Below, in pieces: positions 26,231 through 35,838 of a stretch of DNA of 64,000 nucleotides (position 1 is the first letter of the stretch; every line of letters begins with the position of its first letter). The stretch is taken from positions 124,001 through 188,000 of the forward strand of contig JAGVBZ010000008.1 in NCBI GenBank assembly GCA_020059465.1. Reading direction: 5' to 3'. The DNA comes from Brevinematales bacterium (GTDB taxonomy: Bacteria > Spirochaetota > Brevinematia > Brevinematales > GWF1-51-8). Made by a program: the position numbers and the translations under genes. The notes under the pieces were generated by a model, which did not search any database, had not been told where the DNA came from, and was given only the letters and a program-made list of their open reading frames with translations.

Positions 26231-28414
26231 CTAATCCCTGTTCTCGAACAGGAGATTCATCTGGATTCCGGGATTCTCGTCGAGGAACGATAGAAAATCC
26301 TCAAGCTTCATTCTATACAGCTCGCATTTGGTTGATGCGCGAAAGTCCCTGTCCGGCGCTCCGCCGTTCTCGAACGGCAGGTGGTGCCACATCAGATTAC
26401 CCACGCCGATCTTCTTCGTCTGCTGTCCGAATTCATATGCCACCAGCGAACCTTTTGCGACCAGATATACATATTTCTTCTCATCATCGCCTTTGAACAG
26501 GAATTCGTCCTTCGGCAGATTGATCGGCGACATTATCCCTTCGAGGTGGGTTACCTGCGACGACGAAAGCCGTTTGAAAAATTTATTCGCGCGGATGACA
26601 TTCCATGTTTTCCCGTTGCGGATAACCGCGACCCTCATGATTTCTTCGGCGACCAGTGTCCCGCGTATCAGGCGGAGGAAGTCGGCTTTCGCAATCGAGT
26701 ACGCCTGAACATGGGTGGCGGCGATCACATCCGCGGTACGAAGCCCGCCCAGTACGAGCGACGCCTCGCCGAAGTACTCGAACGTCCCGTACACCTTATC
26801 CTCGACATCCTCGATGCCCCCGATAGAGACATTCCCCGCGACTATCACATAGAACTTATCGCCCGGAGTGTCCTTCTCGATAATCTTATCGCCCTTCTCG
26901 AATTCCTCCTCGTTGACAATCAGCAGGAGGTCTTTTATCCTTTCGCGCGGAAGGTCCTGGAAAATATCGATCCGGCAGAAAACGTCCATCATCCGGTACG
27001 CGTTCTCGTACTTGTGTTTTTTTATATCGGGATACACAGTTTCACCGATACCGAACTTCGCAAGGGTTAATAACGAATCCTTCGGGAAATCCTTTTCGGC
27101 GATATGATAGACAGTGATCTTTTTCTTGATATCGTCGGGCAGGGAATTCAGGTACGAGATCTGAGTATGCAGGGGCGGTACACCCGCCTCATGATAGATT
27201 ATGTCCGCATCCCACGGGTAATTCAGAAGATGGTCCTGACGCGCCTTAGATAATATATTCATCTGATGGAGTTCCTTTATTTTATCCGGCGAATTGAGAT
27301 GGTCGGAGCTGTACAGGAACGTCTTATTCCGGTAAGACACCTGAAACCCGATAGTCGGGATAGAGTGCAGCGAATAATTGAAGCGGAAGAACGCCCCGTG
27401 GATATTGGTCTCGCTATTGAGTTTTAGCGGAATAAAGTTGAACATCTTTACGAGAGTGGACGCCGGCATGCGGGTCAGCGCGGAGTATTTCCTGATAAAG
27501 CTCTGCAGGATGGTCGGCGTGGTATATACTTTTATCTTCCCTTCTTCGAGAATCTTTTGGAACGTACCCGAATCGTGATCGGCATGACAATGCGTCAGGA
27601 TCAGGCAGTCGATCAACTTAGGGTTGACATTTGAATCGCGGAGCCACGCGGTCGAATTCACCGGCGGATCTACCATAATACCGATGCGGTTTATCCAGAT
27701 AATGAATCCCGACGTGTTCTGCTCGTGGTCGAACCCGTGGGACGGCCCCAGACATGTGATGCCGAACTCCGGGGGCTCGAACGGTTCGGCGAGGGTTGTC
27801 CCCAGATCGTACTGTATCTGGAACTTCATCTCGGCGGGCACTTCCGCGATCATCTCGCCCTTATCGTACACGGTGAATCCCAAGTCGGGACGCTGTACGA
27901 TTTTGACGTCGCCGATAACGATGCCATCGGGGTCTATCGGCAGGAATTCCACCATATTCGAGAGCTGGTTCTTGCCCCGGAAAAAGCTCATTTCCGCCTT
28001 CAGGTTGGGAATGATCGCCTCGGAACCTTTTTCATATTCGTTGGCTATATCGATCTTCTCCGGGCCGAAGTTAGCCTCGGTCAGCACTGTTTTCATGTTC
28101 TCGATATGGTTCGGATTGATATATACCGTGGTTTTCTTCTGACGGATATAAAAATTGAAGTATAGCGGGAATTCCACCTCCGCCATACTGATGCCCTGTT
28201 CGGGGTGAAAATGATTATAGGGCAGAATAAATATAGTCGGTATGCCCAGAGGAAGGAGCTTCGTATCCTTCAACGTCTCCGGAGGCGCACCGAATTGTAT
28301 GTACCCGGCGGAAGTGTTCACAAGGTATCCCCCCCGCGGGAGCGAGGTGATGACACCGGTCAGCTCGGTAAGACTTTTTATCCGTTTAATAATTACCCCC
28401 AATATCCTTATCAT
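26231..28414 (-). CDS. MBL-fold hydrolase fused to two cNMP-binding domains
   Basis: About 727 residues. The N-terminal 200 residues form a strand-rich region; a metallo-beta-lactamase domain follows with LTHCHADHDSG near 275-285 and a YHEAG motif near 425. Two cyclic-nucleotide-binding domains occupy about 485-590 (FGEASLVLGGLRTADV, the phosphate cassette, with Arg-Thr) and about 605-720 (more degenerate). Such fusions are likely cyclic-nucleotide-responsive phosphodiesterases or sensors. The start is uncertain: the ATG at 28414 lies inside a promoter -10 element, a TTG at 28402 would be almost leaderless, and another in-frame TTG lies at 28438. Confidence 0.85.
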   Translation of the reverse strand: MIRILGVIIKRIKSLTELTGVITSLPRGGYLVNTSAGYIQFGAPPETLKDTKLLPLGIPTIFILPYNHFHPEQGISMAEVEFPLYFNFYIRQKKTTVYINPNHIENMKTVLTEANFGPEKIDIANEYEKGSEAIIPNLKAEMSFFRGKNQLSNMVEFLPIDPDGIVIGDVKIVQRPDLGFTVYDKGEMIAEVPAEMKFQIQYDLGTTLAEPFEPPEFGITCLGPSHGFDHEQNTSGFIIWINRIGIMVDPPVNSTAWLRDSNVNPKLIDCLILTHCHADHDSGTFQKILEEGKIKVYTTPTILQSFIRKYSALTRMPASTLVKMFNFIPLKLNSETNIHGAFFRFNYSLHSIPTIGFQVSYRNKTFLYSSDHLNSPDKIKELHQMNILSKARQDHLLNYPWDADIIYHEAGVPPLHTQISYLNSLPDDIKKKITVYHIAEKDFPKDSLLTLAKFGIGETVYPDIKKHKYENAYRMMDVFCRIDIFQDLPRERIKDLLLIVNEEEFEKGDKIIEKDTPGDKFYVIVAGNVSIGGIEDVEDKVYGTFEYFGEASLVLGGLRTADVIAATHVQAYSIAKADFLRLIRGTLVAEEIMRVAVIRNGKTWNVIRANKFFKRLSSSQVTHLEGIMSPINLPKDEFLFKGDDEKKYVYLVAKGSLVAYEFGQQTKKIGVGNLMWHHLPFENGGAPDRDFRASTKCELYRMKLEDFLSFLDENPGIQMNLLFENRD

Positions 28415-28438
28415 ACCATTGAAAATAAAAAATATCAA
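28410..28438 (-). promoter_or_regulatory. Candidate promoter overlapping the cNMP-MBL start
   Basis: On the minus strand TTGATA (28438-28433), a 17-nt spacer and TATGAT (28415-28410). If used, transcription starts near 28403, after the ATG at 28414. Confidence 0.5.
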
Positions 28439-29154: not shown

Positions 29155-29280
29155 AGTAGGAGTCTCCCGATGCCGGAAGCGAATGGTAGATATGATACTT
29201 TCTGTCGCCGGAAAGGTTCCAAAGAGCGCCCCGCCGGATAAAGCTCAGGAGAAGCGCTTTAAAGCGCGGGAGAAAAAGAC

Positions 29281-29450
29281 AAAATGCAAACGGCCGGGAA
29301 AGAAAGCAAAGAGATTTAATGCGCGACTCGCAGGATGCGAGGAGTCCCGCGACGGCATGGATGCCGAGAAGCGGGGCGGGGGAACAAGATAAAATGCAAA
29401 CGGCCGGGAAAGAAAGCAAAGAATTTTTGTGCGCGACTCGCAGGGTGCGA
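29281..29450. repeat. Direct repeat of 60 bp, period 110
   Basis: The 60-nt segment at 29281-29340 recurs at 29391-29450, with an identical first 31 nt (AAAATGCAAACGGCCGGGAA...) and a few changes later. It fills most of the 350-nt gap before the DUF4197 gene. A reading frame across it (29183-29392) is compositionally odd and not credible. Confidence 0.85.
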
Positions 29451-31233: not shown

Positions 31234-31397
31234 CGTCACGGGCTATCTATCGATATGAACACTCATTTTAAGATCGGCGTTAGCCGTAAGCAGTACTGTC
31301 CCATGCATCCCGCCCGATAATCAAACTTCGCCCTCATCACGGGCTATATTTGCTTATTTGTATAAAATTTGAAATCGGCGTTAGCCGTACGCAGTAC
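31234..31397 (+). repeat. Two copies of the dispersed intergenic repeat
   Basis: Copies at about 31234-31296 and 31334-31397, each starting CACGGGCTAT and ending ATCGGCGTTAGCCG. The second runs into the 3' end of apbE and supplies its stop codon and last residues. Confidence 0.75.
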
Positions 31398-32246
31398 CTC
31401 GCCGCCGTTCCCGATAATCACCGCCTCCGTGTCCGGCAGCGACTCGATCAGCGCAAGTCCCCGCTCGACCCCTAGCACATAGACGGCGGTAGCCAACGCG
31501 TCGGCGCGGGCGGAGCAGGACGAGACGATGGTCGCCCCCGCGATATCGGTCTCCGCAGGGCGGCCCGTACGGGGGTCGATAATATGCGGAAAGAACTCCC
31601 CGCCGATATGGAAGAAGCGCCGGTATCCCCCCGATGTCACTACCGAGCATTCATCGGCCTCGATCCATCCCGCGCTCTCGCCGTCGTCCGATGCGGGGCT
31701 TTGTATCCCGATCCTCCACGGCGACCCGTCGGGCTTACGCCCCATGACCATGACGTTCCCGCCGAGGTTGATCATCGCGCCCTCCGCATCGTATCTCCGG
31801 TAAATCTCCATCGCGCGGTCGGCGGCGAACCCCTTACCGATACCCCCGAGGTCAAGCTCCATCCCGCACATCGGCAGGAACACATTGCGTCCGTTAATTT
31901 CGATAGGATGTCCCTGCGATATTGCAAGGGTTTCGGCGATCTCCCGGCCGGACGGGGACACTTCCGCGTCTGTGGCGTTCCGCCACAGGCGTACGAGGGG
32001 CGCGGCGGCGATATCGAACACCCCGCCCGTCAGTTCGCGCATCTCCCGCGCGAGTGTGAGCACAGCGATAGTTTCGGGATGCACCCAGACCGGCCTATGC
32101 CCGGCATGAGTCTTCAGACGGGCGATCTCACTCGACGGGCGGTACACGCTCCACAGGCGTTCAAGGCGCGCCATCTCGCGGGAGACCGTCCGGGCGATAT
32201 GTTTCGCGTTCCGTCCGTACACCCTCTGCTCGACTACAGTCCCCAT
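31344..32246 (-). CDS. apbE: FAD:protein FMN transferase ApbE
   Basis: 300 residues beginning MGTVVEQRVYG, which matches the usual start of the ApbE core, so no signal peptide is encoded. Conserved blocks follow: SSEIARL, GGVFDIAAAPLVRLW, GGIGKGFAADRA, MINLGGNVMVMG, VVTSGGYRRFF, HIIDPRTGRP, and SSCSARADALATAVYVLG. ApbE transfers FMN from FAD to Thr or Ser in FMN-binding domains, and two such substrates are encoded just upstream. The last 14 or so codons are supplied by a dispersed repeat. Last gene of the MarR-headed operon. Confidence 0.93.
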   Translation of the reverse strand: MGTVVEQRVYGRNAKHIARTVSREMARLERLWSVYRPSSEIARLKTHAGHRPVWVHPETIAVLTLAREMRELTGGVFDIAAAPLVRLWRNATDAEVSPSGREIAETLAISQGHPIEINGRNVFLPMCGMELDLGGIGKGFAADRAMEIYRRYDAEGAMINLGGNVMVMGRKPDGSPWRIGIQSPASDDGESAGWIEADECSVVTSGGYRRFFHIGGEFFPHIIDPRTGRPAETDIAGATIVSSCSARADALATAVYVLGVERGLALIESLPDTEAVIIGNGGEVLRTANADFKFYTNKQI

Positions 32247-32331
32247 CAGGAAATCCTGCTTTGCGCAGGCCTGACGGCCGTTCCCGTAGTCCGAACAATT
32301 CTCGATTATGATGAGTTTTTCCTGCTGCGGA

Positions 32332-32730
32332 TTATTTCGACGTGGTTACCGCGTTCTCGACAGCCTTCAGAAATGCTATGGAATCGATAGTCGCGCCGGA
32401 ATAGGTATCTAATTGAAGATTCTGCTTATCGATAATGGATTGAATGATTTTTCCGCTCATTTCCTCTTTCATCCCAAAATCATTTGGAACATATGTAATC
32501 CCGGCGATCTTCCCCCCCTGCACTTTAACTTCAAGACTATAATTCCAACGGGCATGATGAAACTCGCCGTGATACACACCGTTGGGAAGTTTGGAGACAT
32601 CGGGAGTCCCGATACTCATTTCCTTGATCTCCTTCATCCCTTTTGTACCGAAATACACTCCGATAACGCCGATAAGCGCTATTACACCGATAATGATTAA
32701 TACTACCGTCACAGCCGTTCTCCTTTTCAT
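32332..32730 (-). CDS. FMN-binding domain protein, membrane-anchored, copy 1
   Basis: 132 residues: one N-terminal transmembrane helix (about 7-27) and an extracytoplasmic FMN_bind domain. The flavinylation motif is DTYSGATIDS, Thr114 (or Ser111) being the expected site for phosphoester-linked FMN added by ApbE. Such proteins carry electrons outside the cytoplasm, as in RnfG, NqrC and the extracellular-electron-transfer protein PplA. A GAGGG site precedes the ATG. Paralogue of the next gene. Confidence 0.9.
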   Translation of the reverse strand: MKRRTAVTVVLIIIGVIALIGVIGVYFGTKGMKEIKEMSIGTPDVSKLPNGVYHGEFHHARWNYSLEVKVQGGKIAGITYVPNDFGMKEEMSGKIIQSIIDKQNLQLDTYSGATIDSIAFLKAVENAVTTSK

Positions 32731-32741
32731 AAATTTCCCTC

Positions 32742-33122
32742 TTACTTTATTTCCGTCAACGCATTCTCGACAGCCTTCAGGAAGGCCTTGGAATCGACCG
32801 TCGCGGCGGAAAGCGCGTCGATATTCACACGCTGTTCGCTGATAATCGTCGCCGTCATATCCTGGCTGAACTTCTCAAGTTCCGGATACTGCATTTTCAC
32901 ATTGGTAATCCCGGTGATCTTCCCGCCCTTCACTGTCACCTCGACTATATAATTCCACCGTGCTTTCTTGAACTCGCCCTTATAAGCTCCGTCCTTGATT
33001 TTCGATATATCGACATTATTTATCTTCATCTTCTTGATCGGCCCCATCCCCCACATTAAAAAGAAAAACATCAGCCCGACGAATCCCGCTATAATACCGA
33101 GAATGATCAATACAACATTCAT
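32742..33122 (-). CDS. FMN-binding domain protein, membrane-anchored, copy 2
   Basis: 126 residues with the same layout as copy 1: a transmembrane helix at about 4-24, then the FMN_bind domain (GAYKGEFKKARWNYIVEVTVKG). The flavinylation motif reads DALSAATVDS, with Ala in place of the usual Gly, and Thr108 as the likely acceptor. It lies 11 nt upstream of copy 1 on the same transcript. Two adjacent carriers of slightly different sequence could form a short electron-transfer chain. Confidence 0.9.
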   Translation of the reverse strand: MNVVLIILGIIAGFVGLMFFFLMWGMGPIKKMKINNVDISKIKDGAYKGEFKKARWNYIVEVTVKGGKITGITNVKMQYPELEKFSQDMTATIISEQRVNIDALSAATVDSKAFLKAVENALTEIK

Positions 33123-33159
33123 TCACCGCTCCTTCAGGTTTTTCAATATTTTATATTAT

Positions 33160-33831
33160 TCATGAACGCCTGTCATCTTTTTCCTTCTTTATTTTTACTT
33201 TCCGCCATTTAAAATACTTCATCGAGTTGATGTACGGCGAACCGAGGTAGGTCAGCGTGCTGATAATAAGCGACAACGGGATAACCTTCGATAACGGGGT
33301 ACAGTGCATCGCGCCCGGACGGTTCTCCTTCCGCCCCGGGTCGACATCGTACTCCGCGCCGTCTACGGCGACCCGCACCCACATATGCCCCAATATTCCC
33401 CCCTCGCGCCAGACTCCCTCGACATACCCTGCGGGAAATTTTACCCGAAACGCATGCACTATCCGCGGACGGAACCCTAGGCGTTCGAGTATCATATGGA
33501 GCGCCCATCCCATATGCCAGCAGTATCCCTGCCCGCGTTCGAACGCCCTGCCGGGCATATCGTAGGAGTTCCGGACGGAGTACCTCATCTTTTTCGCGAC
33601 CAGCATCCGTGCGTACTCAACCAGTTCCAGCCCGGCCAAACCCGTAGAACGGCACTCCTCAGCCGCGTCCTCAATAGTAATTACCCCGTCGACAGACTCT
33701 CTGTCATGCGGCGGGCGTGGCAGGCTCGCCATCGCGGGGATAGACATAAAAAGCGGGATCAGGAAAACCACCACAATGACTGCGGTCATCGATCCGAGAA
33801 CGATCAGCCACAAATATAGTATTTGCTCCAT
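33160..33831 (-). CDS. Membrane-anchored transglutaminase-like protein
   Basis: 223 residues from the ATG at 33831, which has GGGG 6 nt upstream (an ATG two codons earlier has no spacing). One N-terminal transmembrane helix (about 8-32) precedes a transglutaminase-like cysteine-protease fold: Cys in GQGYCWHMGWAL, His in GHMWVRV, and Asp in EYDVDPG. The fold may cleave or cross-link amide bonds outside the cytoplasm. Its place between a small Cys-rich gene and the FMN-binding genes suggests maturation of, or a partner role in, this operon. Confidence 0.78.
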   Translation of the reverse strand: MEQILYLWLIVLGSMTAVIVVVFLIPLFMSIPAMASLPRPPHDRESVDGVITIEDAAEECRSTGLAGLELVEYARMLVAKKMRYSVRNSYDMPGRAFERGQGYCWHMGWALHMILERLGFRPRIVHAFRVKFPAGYVEGVWREGGILGHMWVRVAVDGAEYDVDPGRKENRPGAMHCTPLSKVIPLSLIISTLTYLGSPYINSMKYFKWRKVKIKKEKDDRRS

Positions 33832-33840
33832 CGGCATCCC

Positions 33841-33972
33841 CTAATTCTTTTTTCCGCGTTCGCACGCCGGCCGCCCGCCTTTCCGGGCATGTTTTTCCCG
33901 GCAGGCGTCACAGTTTCCCCAGTTGACACATTTCCGTTTCCGGCACGGACAATCCGCCCTGAATTCACTCAT
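33841..33972 (-). CDS. 43-residue Cys-rich protein
   Basis: A short gene of 43 residues that starts inside the MarR gene (8-nt overlap) and ends 3 nt before the first ATG of the transglutaminase-like gene. It has six cysteines: CPC (8, 10), C15, CDAC (21, 24) and C37, in a basic background (CRKRKC, REKHARK). The spacing suggests a zinc or iron-sulphur knuckle. Tight packing on both sides makes it a real gene. I know of no function for it. No signal peptide, so cytoplasmic. Confidence 0.7.
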   Translation of the reverse strand: MSEFRADCPCRKRKCVNWGNCDACREKHARKGGRPACERGKKN

Positions 33973-34411
33973 CCGACTTCTCCATCACAATTTTCAGAAA
34001 CCGTTCTATTACTTTACTCGCAATGTCCGCGTCCTTTTCGGAGATATCCCTCGACGCGTCCGCGTAGAGGCTTGTCACCACCGCGAGGGTTTCGTCCATC
34101 AGGGCACGCCCATCGGGAGTGGTGCGGAGGATATTCGCGCGGCGGTCTGTGGGGTCGCTGTCACGCACGATCCACCCCTTTTTCTCCAGCCCGTCGCATA
34201 TAACCATCGCGTTCGTGGTGTCTATCCCGATCATCTTCGCGAGCTCGACCTGACGTAGGCCGTCGTGACGGTACAATCCGTACAGAGCGCCCCATTGGGC
34301 ATAGGTGATCCCATATGGGGCGAGCCGGTCGCTCACAAGCCTTCGTGTCGCGGTGTAGGTATACGCAATCATCTCGAACATATGCGGGATTCCTGTCTCC
34401 GGGAATAACAT
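33965..34411 (-). CDS. MarR family transcriptional regulator
   Basis: 148 residues from the ATG at 34411 (GAGGTG site upstream). The winged helix is clear: YGITYAQWGALYGLYRHDG, LRQVELAKMIGIDTTNAMVI, then LEKKGWIVRDSDPTDRRANIL with the wing. MarR proteins are dimeric repressors released by small phenolics, oxidants or metals. It heads the flavinylation operon and its promoter overlaps a perfect 14-nt palindrome, so autoregulation of the whole operon is likely. Confidence 0.92.
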   Translation of the reverse strand: MLFPETGIPHMFEMIAYTYTATRRLVSDRLAPYGITYAQWGALYGLYRHDGLRQVELAKMIGIDTTNAMVICDGLEKKGWIVRDSDPTDRRANILRTTPDGRALMDETLAVVTSLYADASRDISEKDADIASKVIERFLKIVMEKSDE

Positions 34412-34422
34412 AAGCACCTCTT

Positions 34423-34485
34423 ATAGTACTAACTATAATTGTACTATATAGTACTATTATAACATAGGTAGTATTGGGATGTCAA
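34423..34485 (-). promoter_or_regulatory. MarR operon promoter with palindromic operators
   Basis: On the minus strand TTGACA (34485-34480), an 18-nt spacer and TATAAT (34461-34456). The expected start lies inside GTACTATATAGTAC (34441-34454), a perfect palindrome. A second inverted repeat, ATAGT n4 ACTAT (34423-34436), follows it in the leader. Both share an ATAGTA core and are natural MarR dimer sites. Confidence 0.82.
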
Positions 34486-34590: not shown

Positions 34591-35838
34591 ATGAAAGAAT
34601 ACATTTATGATATATTAAACTCAGAGAATGAATTGGAAGTACTAATGAAGTATAGCTATTATTTTCATCAAGTGAAGGATTATTGCATTATTTATGAATC
34701 TTCAAATAACGCAAAAAATAGTAATAGAGTTCCAATAAAAGATGTATTTAATAAAAACTTTACGGCAGGATGTAGAATAAATAGCCTTTTTCAGACAAAT
34801 AATTTATTTTTTTATGATCCGAAGACAATCGCAAAAAGGCTAAATAATGGATCATCAGAAATCCCTATTGATTTAATAATTTCTCTTGATACTCAAGCAG
34901 TTAGCTATTTTAGAACTTATATAAACAAAGGAGTTTCTCCACCTTCTGATTTTCTAGAAGTTATTAATTATTTATTTGAGAGAAATATTGACTTTGATCC
35001 TTTACCATACCTTATTGAAAACTATAAAAATATGCTAGAAAATGAAAATGTTATTCCTGAAATATTTGATACTTTAAAAGCATATGAAACACTTCGTACT
35101 TTAAACTATTCTGAGTTTATAAAAACAAGAAGACTCGTTTCATTGATTTCTAATTCTGAAATCAATAGTAATGTTCAGAAAATATTAGACATTATGCTAA
35201 ATAATTTTCATGATCCTCAATTTACGGATGAATATAATATATATTTCGATTTAATTTACATTTCTTTGATGAAAATAATACAAATTCAGTTTATTTCACC
35301 AAAAAAATCTCTTTTTAAAAAATTCTGTGAGTTATTATTTTTCTTTGATACTGAGCTTTCCGTCTATATTGAAGATATTGCCATTTTAGCAATACATTAT
35401 TTCAATTCTCATCAATTAAGATTCTTCTCAAAAATTCATAAAAACAAAAACAAAAACAAATTATTATATGAGATACAGAGTATGGCCGGTGATTTATTAC
35501 ATATCTTCTGGATGAAGCAACATTTTACTTTTCAACCTAAAGAAGATGCAAGATATATTATTCCTACTTTATTATCTTTCGATAAGCGTTTTTCTGATAT
35601 ATTTAGTATATTTTCAATAAAATCTATTGCATTTAAAAAAGATGAAAATGAATTCATTGTAATAAATAAAAACCCTATTACTAATTTTTTTAATCAAGAA
35701 CAAAACCAATATATAAAGAATAAATTTTTTTTAGAGAATTCGATAAAAGAGCGTGTAAGAAATAAAATCACTGCAATTAGTAAAATAGCAGAAACTAAAA
35801 CAAATCTGTTAAGATTAATAGATAAATTCACAGCATAA
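34591..35838 (+). CDS. AT-rich orphan protein of unknown function
   Basis: 415 residues, no signal peptide or membrane helix, mostly helical and rich in Asn, Ile, Lys and Phe. Base composition is much more AT-rich than the genes on both sides, so it was probably acquired. Acidic residues in a LIISLDTQAVSYFRTYI stretch (about 90-106) and in EDIAILAIHYF (about 265-275) recall the spacing of a PIN-like nuclease core, but the match is weak. It stands alone between the MarR operon and proB. A defence or stress role is possible but not shown. Confidence 0.6.
   Translation: MKEYIYDILNSENELEVLMKYSYYFHQVKDYCIIYESSNNAKNSNRVPIKDVFNKNFTAGCRINSLFQTNNLFFYDPKTIAKRLNNGSSEIPIDLIISLDTQAVSYFRTYINKGVSPPSDFLEVINYLFERNIDFDPLPYLIENYKNMLENENVIPEIFDTLKAYETLRTLNYSEFIKTRRLVSLISNSEINSNVQKILDIMLNNFHDPQFTDEYNIYFDLIYISLMKIIQIQFISPKKSLFKKFCELLFFFDTELSVYIEDIAILAIHYFNSHQLRFFSKIHKNKNKNKLLYEIQSMAGDLLHIFWMKQHFTFQPKEDARYIIPTLLSFDKRFSDIFSIFSIKSIAFKKDENEFIVINKNPITNFFNQEQNQYIKNKFFLENSIKERVRNKITAISKIAETKTNLLRLIDKFTA

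What the first reader, a model, noticed from the sequence alone, without database searches (positions are those of the whole stretch)
31344..34485. MarR-controlled extracytoplasmic flavinylation operon
MarR, a 43-residue Cys-rich protein, a membrane transglutaminase-like protein, two anchored FMN_bind proteins and ApbE are packed in one operon with one overlap and mostly short gaps. Known: ApbE attaches FMN to FMN_bind domains used in Rnf/Nqr and extracellular electron transfer. No Rnf, Nqr or cytochrome gene is present, and the transglutaminase-like enzyme and Cys-rich protein are not standard members, so this may be a variant electron-transfer or redox-sensing module.
Basis: partly seen in the sequence, partly recalled or inferred. 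Interest (0 to 1): 0.7.

Follow-up and report, generated by a model that had tools for sequence, protein, structure and literature searches.

The report
Flavin redox operon with transglutaminase-like partner
An uncultured spirochaete carries a six-gene, repressor-controlled operon predicted to attach flavin to two small membrane proteins together with an unexplained transglutaminase-like enzyme; relatives of that enzyme sit next to electron carriers in other bacteria too, so this looks like an undescribed version of a known type of redox system.

Summary
In detail: MarR, a 43-residue Cys protein, a membrane transglutaminase-like (TG) protein, two anchored FMN_bind proteins and ApbE form one minus-strand operon, preceded by a consensus sigma70 promoter with overlapping repeats. 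The genome is a Spirochaetota MAG.

The same six-gene order recurs in two other genomes of the genus, with all genes under purifying selection. A distant spirochaete (G327) has four of the parts, reshuffled, in one operon: MarR, FMN_bind lipoprotein, TG, Cys protein. The TG family is rare (6 of 393 Spirochaetota genomes). Elsewhere it lies beside flavodoxin with Fe-S proteins, a diheme cytochrome or a Rieske protein. So the TG gene is a true partner of a redox module.

The "extracytoplasmic" part of the title is not established. The operon's ApbE has no export signal in any of three genomes, while a second, lipoprotein ApbE and an Rnf operon lie elsewhere in the genome. The side of the FMN domains is unresolved: ApbE argues for the cytosolic face, lipoprotein relatives for outside.

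What the TG enzyme does is unknown; I propose covalent processing or cross-linking of the tethered carriers. Verdict: a new variant of a known kind.

The parts
34456..34485 (-). sigma70-type promoter TTGACA-18-TATAAT with extended -10
   Evidence: 12 of 12 consensus match; aligned in G002 and G003
34421..34461 (-). probable MarR operator: TAGTAC/TTAGTAC repeats overlapping the -10 and the start of transcription
   Evidence: 26-nt near-palindrome and further half-sites; conserved in the genus; similar half-sites before the G327 and G020 MarR genes. Binding not tested
33965..34417 (-). MarR-family regulator (likely start 34411)
   Evidence: Pfam MarR_2 55 bits; recognition-helix motif DTTNAMVICD shared with G327 and G020
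33841..33972 (-). 43-aa protein with six Cys and one His (CxCx4Cx5CxxCx3Hx8C), DUF6485-like
   Evidence: invariant Cys/His in three genomes; NG86 dN/dS 0.24-0.26; counterpart in the G327 operon; homologues reach PF20095 but this one does not
33160..33831 (-). membrane-anchored transglutaminase-like protein; C104, H149, D164 (numbered from ATG 33831)
   Evidence: Transglut_core 25 bits; AF2 pLDDT 85; weak matches to LapG, TGases and NATs; Cys and His invariant in 11 relatives
32742..33122 (-). FMN_bind1: one N-terminal TM helix plus FMN_bind domain, site DALSAAT (T108)
   Evidence: Pfam 31.6 bits; TM; alignment
32332..32730 (-). FMN_bind2: one N-terminal TM helix plus FMN_bind domain, site DTYSGAT (T114)
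   Evidence: Pfam 31.6 bits; TM; alignment
31344..32312 (-). ApbE flavin transferase without export signal; ATG at 32246, probable non-ATG start near 32306-32312
   Evidence: Pfam 275 bits; aligns with solved FMN transferases; no hydrophobic N-terminus; codon-position bias upstream of the ATG

Best explanation
A MarR-controlled membrane redox module. When MarR leaves the operator over its own promoter, the operon makes two small membrane-tethered FMN_bind carriers and the ApbE that attaches FMN to Thr114 of FMN_bind2 and, probably less completely, Thr108 of FMN_bind1. The small Cys/His protein is a cytosolic metal or Fe-S partner. A tethered transglutaminase-like cysteine enzyme acts on the carriers or their surroundings at the membrane, most likely by covalent processing or cross-linking. 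Shown: gene content, conservation, motifs, promoter, and linkage of the TG enzyme to redox carriers. Inferred: flavinylation, electron transfer, repression, and the role of the TG enzyme. The side of the membrane on which the FMN domains sit is left open.
For: Six-gene order conserved in three genomes with purifying selection. ApbE aligns with solved FMN transferases. FMN_bind2 fits the published motif D-x-x-[ST]-G-A-[ST]; FMN_bind1 has Ala for Gly, a change that lowered flavinylation to about half in a model enzyme. A rearranged MarR/FMN_bind/TG/Cys operon exists in G327. In G020 the TG gene lies with a DTTN-type MarR, 4Fe-4S protein, flavodoxin and a diheme lipoprotein; in Anaerolineae with flavodoxin, 4Fe-4S or Rieske proteins. 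The MarR type was found strongly only in genomes with the TG gene. Promoter and operator repeats conserved.
Against: No transmembrane electron-transfer partner (Rnf, NapH-like, MsrQ-like, DsbD, cytochrome) in the operon. Operon ApbE lacks an export signal while FMN_bind relatives are often lipoproteins, so enzyme and substrate may be on different sides. In G327 the TG Asp is replaced by Cys, which questions catalysis there. No biochemical data exist.
Confidence: 0.55

Rival explanations
1. Cytosolic-face version: ApbE stays in the cytosol and flavinylates FMN domains that face the cytosol, so the pair works as membrane-tethered flavodoxin substitutes. This is one of the two topologies left open by the best explanation.
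For: Operon ApbE has no export signal in three genomes, while a separate lipoprotein ApbE and Rnf serve the outside. Klebsiella has the same pair of ApbEs and its signal-less one works in the cytosol (PMC12052999). In G020 and Anaerolineae the flavin carrier of the TG locus is a flavodoxin without an export signal. FMN_bind1 has no N-terminal positive charge and a KKMK flank after its TM.
Against: G327's operon FMN_bind is a lipoprotein and its only ApbE is a lipoprotein. FMN_bind2 begins MKRR, which favours N-in, C-out. TG homologues in Anaerolineae begin with K/R before the TM, favouring an outside domain.
Confidence: 0.4
2. Extracytoplasmic version: the FMN domains face outwards and are flavinylated by the lipoprotein ApbE encoded elsewhere; the operon ApbE does something else or reaches the outside in an unknown way.
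For: Lipoprotein relatives, among them the G327 operon member; a second, lipoprotein ApbE in the same genome; extracytoplasmic carriers next to TG in G020 (diheme lipoprotein) and L022 (Rieske).
Against: It leaves the dedicated, conserved operon ApbE without a substrate on its own side of the membrane.
Confidence: 0.45
3. Chance or passenger neighbourhood: TG and the Cys gene merely lie within an ordinary ApbE/FMN_bind gene pair and have no function in common with it.
For: Most short FMN_bind genes examined in the phylum have no TG neighbour, and Cys homologues stand alone elsewhere.
Against: TG adjoins FMN_bind in two distant families, with MarR and the Cys gene both times and the order changed. 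By my own estimate, chance adjacency of TG to one of two FMN_bind genes in a 3.6 Mb genome is about 0.1%.
Confidence: 0.07

Closest known systems
Flavinylation-associated gene clusters of Meheust et al. 2021 (PMC8238504) and Huang et al. 2024 (PMC11334425)
   Same: ApbE next to FMN_bind genes; clusters without a transmembrane electron-transfer gene are recognised as a category there.
   Different: Those surveys required an export signal and do not mention transglutaminase-like or MarR partners in the main text. Here the ApbE is signal-less and TG, Cys and MarR genes are conserved members.
Cytosolic ApbE of Klebsiella pneumoniae with its FMN-containing fumarate reductase (reviewed in PMC12052999)
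   Same: Two ApbEs in one genome, one lipoprotein and one signal-less.
   Different: The substrates here are small TM-anchored FMN_bind proteins, not a soluble fumarate reductase.
Treponema pallidum Ftp/ApbE and its periplasmic lipoprotein substrate Tp0171 (PMC4767422, PMC12052999)
   Same: Same phylum; a small flavinylation-motif lipoprotein as an ApbE substrate outside Rnf.
   Different: Ftp and Tp0171 are exported; no TG, Cys or MarR partner is reported in what was read. Not compared by sequence here.
RnfG/NqrC
   Same: N-terminal anchor plus FMN_bind domain with the same attachment motif.
   Different: No other Rnf/Nqr subunit in the operon, and NCBIfam RnfG models score far below cut-off. 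A true Rnf operon is elsewhere in the genome.
LapG-type and other transglutaminase-like cysteine enzymes
   Same: Cys-His-Asp set and fold; the top structural match is LapG.
   Different: Foldseek E about 1e-3 and TM-score up to 0.5 only; TM-anchored; no LapD partner was found among the annotated operon genes.
DUF6485 (PF20095)
   Same: Cys/His spacing and small stand-alone size; genuine DUF6485 members are among its homologues.
   Different: The window protein and its G327 counterpart do not match the DUF6485 model in Pfam and lack its C-terminal part.

Membership tests
ApbE/FMN_bind flavinylation gene cluster | apbE (PF02424) adjacent to an FMN_bind gene (PF04205) | tested here: met
   Both above Pfam cut-off, adjacent in three genomes
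ApbE/FMN_bind flavinylation gene cluster | Flavinylation motif D-x-x-[ST]-G-A-[ST] in the substrate | tested here: met
   FMN_bind2 DTYSGAT meets it; FMN_bind1 DALSAAT departs by Gly to Ala
ApbE/FMN_bind flavinylation gene cluster | Covalent FMN on the substrate | not testable with these tools
   Needs protein chemistry
Extracytosolic flavinylation system | ApbE exported (signal peptide or lipobox) | tested here: not met
   No hydrophobic N-terminus in the operon ApbE of three genomes
Extracytosolic flavinylation system | FMN domain outside the cytosol | tested here: inconclusive
   TM anchor present; flanking charges ambiguous; lipoprotein relatives exist
Extracytosolic flavinylation system | Transmembrane electron-transfer protein in the cluster | tested here: not met
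   None among the six genes; Rnf lies on another contig
Rnf/Nqr complex | Other Rnf or Nqr subunits in the operon | tested here: not met
Transglut_core (PF01841) | Profile score above curated cut-off | tested here: met
   25.0 against 23 bits
Transglut_core (PF01841) | Cys-His-Asp catalytic residues | tested here: met
   C104, H149, D164; Cys and His invariant in 11 relatives, Asp lost in G327
Transglut_core (PF01841) | Transglutaminase or peptidase activity | not testable with these tools
   Needs enzyme assay
DUF6485 (PF20095) | Profile score above curated cut-off | tested here: not met
   No match for the window protein; three distant homologues do match
MarR family | Winged-helix MarR profile above cut-off | tested here: met
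   PF12802 55 bits, PF01047 52 bits
MarR family | Binding to a palindromic operator at its own promoter | tested here: inconclusive
   Conserved repeats over the promoter; binding not testable here

The most novel reading that the evidence does not exclude
A previously undescribed redox module, found in Spirochaetota and Anaerolineae, built around a rare membrane transglutaminase-like enzyme that covalently processes or cross-links flavin carriers. In this genus the carriers are covalently flavinylated at the cytosolic face by a dedicated cytosolic ApbE, giving membrane-tethered flavodoxin substitutes.
Probability: 0.2. Interest if true: 0.72.

Novelty: new variant of a known kind. Interest (0 to 1): 0.5.

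Why it matters
The 2021 flavinylation survey set aside genes without export signals, and neither survey read here mentions transglutaminase-like partners. This operon and its reshuffled relatives name a small, testable gene set that links a cysteine enzyme of the transglutaminase fold to flavin carriers. It also raises a concrete question: can ApbE flavinylate membrane-tethered FMN_bind proteins from the cytosolic side?

Tried and rejected
TG in plasmids and viral contigs: no relatives. TG in 301 Chloroflexota genomes: only the starting genome and one weak hit, so it is rare there as well. Spaced operator half-sites in the own genome: fewer hits than the reversed control pattern, so no regulon was found; the pattern also missed the operon's own operator, so it was too strict. 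Rfam on 28-37 kb: nothing. G192/G193 weak TG hits lie in long open frames and were not pursued; the G244 MarR has unrelated neighbours. Peptoclostridium FMN_bind: no TG, ApbE or MarR neighbour. CDGSH iron-sulfur family for the Cys protein: considered and set aside, the Cys/His order does not fit (from memory of the motif). Literature: no paper combining transglutaminase with flavinylation terms in the open library and none naming DUF6485; most subscription papers are not held.
Full report
What is there. Six genes lie head to tail on the minus strand between 34417 and 31344. Pfam names MarR, Transglut_core, FMN_bind twice and ApbE above their cut-offs; the 43-residue protein matches nothing. 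A 12/12 sigma70 promoter with an extended -10 lies at 34485-34456. TAGTAC/TTAGTAC repeats overlap it and run towards the MarR start; promoter and repeats align in three genomes.

Conservation. G002 and G003 of the same genus have the same six genes in the same order, at the same place downstream of obgE-proB. NG86 dN/dS is 0.08-0.28 for every gene, the 43-codon gene included. In G001 the contig holds only the last part of TG and the start of FMN_bind1 behind proB. That is either a deletion or an assembly fault in a 73% complete genome.

Beyond the genus. A TG profile found the family in 6 of 393 Spirochaetota genomes (two further hits are weak matches in long open frames). In G327, of another family, it lies in a compact operon MarR, FMN_bind lipoprotein, TG, Cys protein (L079). 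These are four of the six parts in a different order, which argues that the association is kept by selection rather than inherited as one block. The G327 FMN_bind scores below the Pfam cut-off but matches the operon profile and carries DVVSGAS. In G020 the TG gene lies with a DTTN-type MarR, a 4Fe-4S protein, flavodoxin and a 74-aa lipoprotein with two CxxCH motifs. In Anaerolineae it follows TetR in five of six loci (not L018); flavodoxin follows TG in the same five, then a 4Fe-4S protein in three or a Rieske protein in one, while one contig ends there. A search of 276 genomes for the MarR found it strongly only in the genus and in G020, with one weaker hit in unrelated surroundings; G327 was not in that sample. 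So regulator, TG and redox carriers travel together, and the TG gene is not a passenger.

The TG protein. AF2 gives a confident model (pLDDT 85) with an N-terminal TM helix and a C-terminal helix. The best structural matches are LapG, TGases and arylamine N-acetyltransferases at E about 1e-3. Cys and His are invariant and the Asp is kept in all but G327, where it is Cys. The alignment given to AF2 included rows from loci obtained with the fetch from genomes (L010, L011, L079), a source that the tool's description does not list; I noticed this afterwards, the tool had accepted it, and I made no further submission of that kind.

Flavinylation. ApbE aligns over nearly its whole length with solved FMN transferases. 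The published motif is D-x-x-[ST]-G-A-[ST] (PMC12052999). FMN_bind2 has DTYSGAT; FMN_bind1 has DALSAAT or DTYSAAT in the genus, and a Gly-to-Ala change gave about half flavinylation in the model enzyme cited there.

The operon ApbE has no signal peptide, lipobox or TM in three genomes. Codon-position differences between the window and G002 upstream of ATG 32246 (3, 4 and 10 at positions 1, 2, 3) suggest that translation begins earlier, at a non-ATG codon, still without a hydrophobic stretch. This genome also encodes a lipoprotein ApbE, with close homologues in G002 and G003 and a fragment in G001. An rnfC-D-G-E-A operon on another contig supplies an obvious extracytoplasmic substrate for that enzyme. 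Klebsiella has the same pair of ApbEs, and there the signal-less one works in the cytosol (PMC12052999). Against a cytosolic FMN domain stand the lipoprotein FMN_bind in the G327 operon, G327's only ApbE being a lipoprotein, and the K/R-first TG homologues. I leave it unresolved at about even odds.

Mechanism. Most likely a MarR-controlled set of membrane-tethered flavin carriers with their own flavin transferase, a Cys/metal protein and a tethered cysteine enzyme. Electron transfer is inferred from family knowledge and neighbours. The action of the TG enzyme is a guess.

Comparison. The two flavinylation surveys read do not mention transglutaminase or MarR in their main texts, and the 2021 survey required an export signal. 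No paper in the open library combined the terms. I file the operon as a new variant of the ApbE/FMN_bind gene cluster; the extracytosolic label is withheld because a defining feature, ApbE export, was tested and not met for the operon's own ApbE.

Noticed in passing
window 32246-32318 (-): The ApbE frame is open and shows third-position bias upstream of the first ATG with no ATG/GTG/TTG there in the window or G002 (G002 has a stop just before it), so a rare start codon such as ATT/ATC/ATA is likely; two Cys residues in that stretch are conserved.
   Followed up: partly
G001 contig C116, L012:5915-6353: Promoter, MarR, Cys gene and most of TG are missing behind proB, with a junction inside TG: deletion or mis-assembly.
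   Followed up: partly
L023:2951-6597 and L024:2951-6597: A stretch of about 3.6 kb (Fe-S protein, DUF2807, flavodoxin, diheme lipoprotein, TG) looks nearly identical between a Spirochaetota bin and an Aminicenantes bin of similar bin naming, with different flanks: recent transfer or a binning or assembly artefact.
   Followed up: no
L081:11069-13684 and L108:4330-5854: Two other spirochaetes pair an ApbE without a visible export signal with a TM-anchored FMN_bind gene (plus TetR and a DUF2975-like gene in L081), so signal-less ApbE with anchored FMN_bind is not unique to the window.
   Followed up: partly
G000:C3:39514-39903 (L014:6509-6907): A stand-alone TM-anchored FMN_bind protein elsewhere in the genome, kept in G001, G002 and G003 beside a conserved gene set.
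   Followed up: no
window 29266-29450: Two 75-nt direct repeats at 89% identity, 110 nt apart, just upstream of the DUF4197 gene.
   Followed up: partly
window 34591-35838 (+): AT-rich 415-aa ORF without any Pfam match, lying between MarR and proB; G002 and G003 have no gene of that size there, so it looks like an insertion.
   Followed up: no
window 26231-28438 (-): Long ORF whose sequence reads like a metallo-beta-lactamase-type domain followed by cyclic-nucleotide-binding-type repeats (by eye, not scanned).
   Followed up: no
L133:1-2433 (G327): G327's only ApbE, a lipoprotein, lies next to an NADH dehydrogenase-like gene and a small ORF that reads like a NusG-II-type protein, resembling parts of known extracellular electron-transfer loci (by eye).
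   Followed up: no
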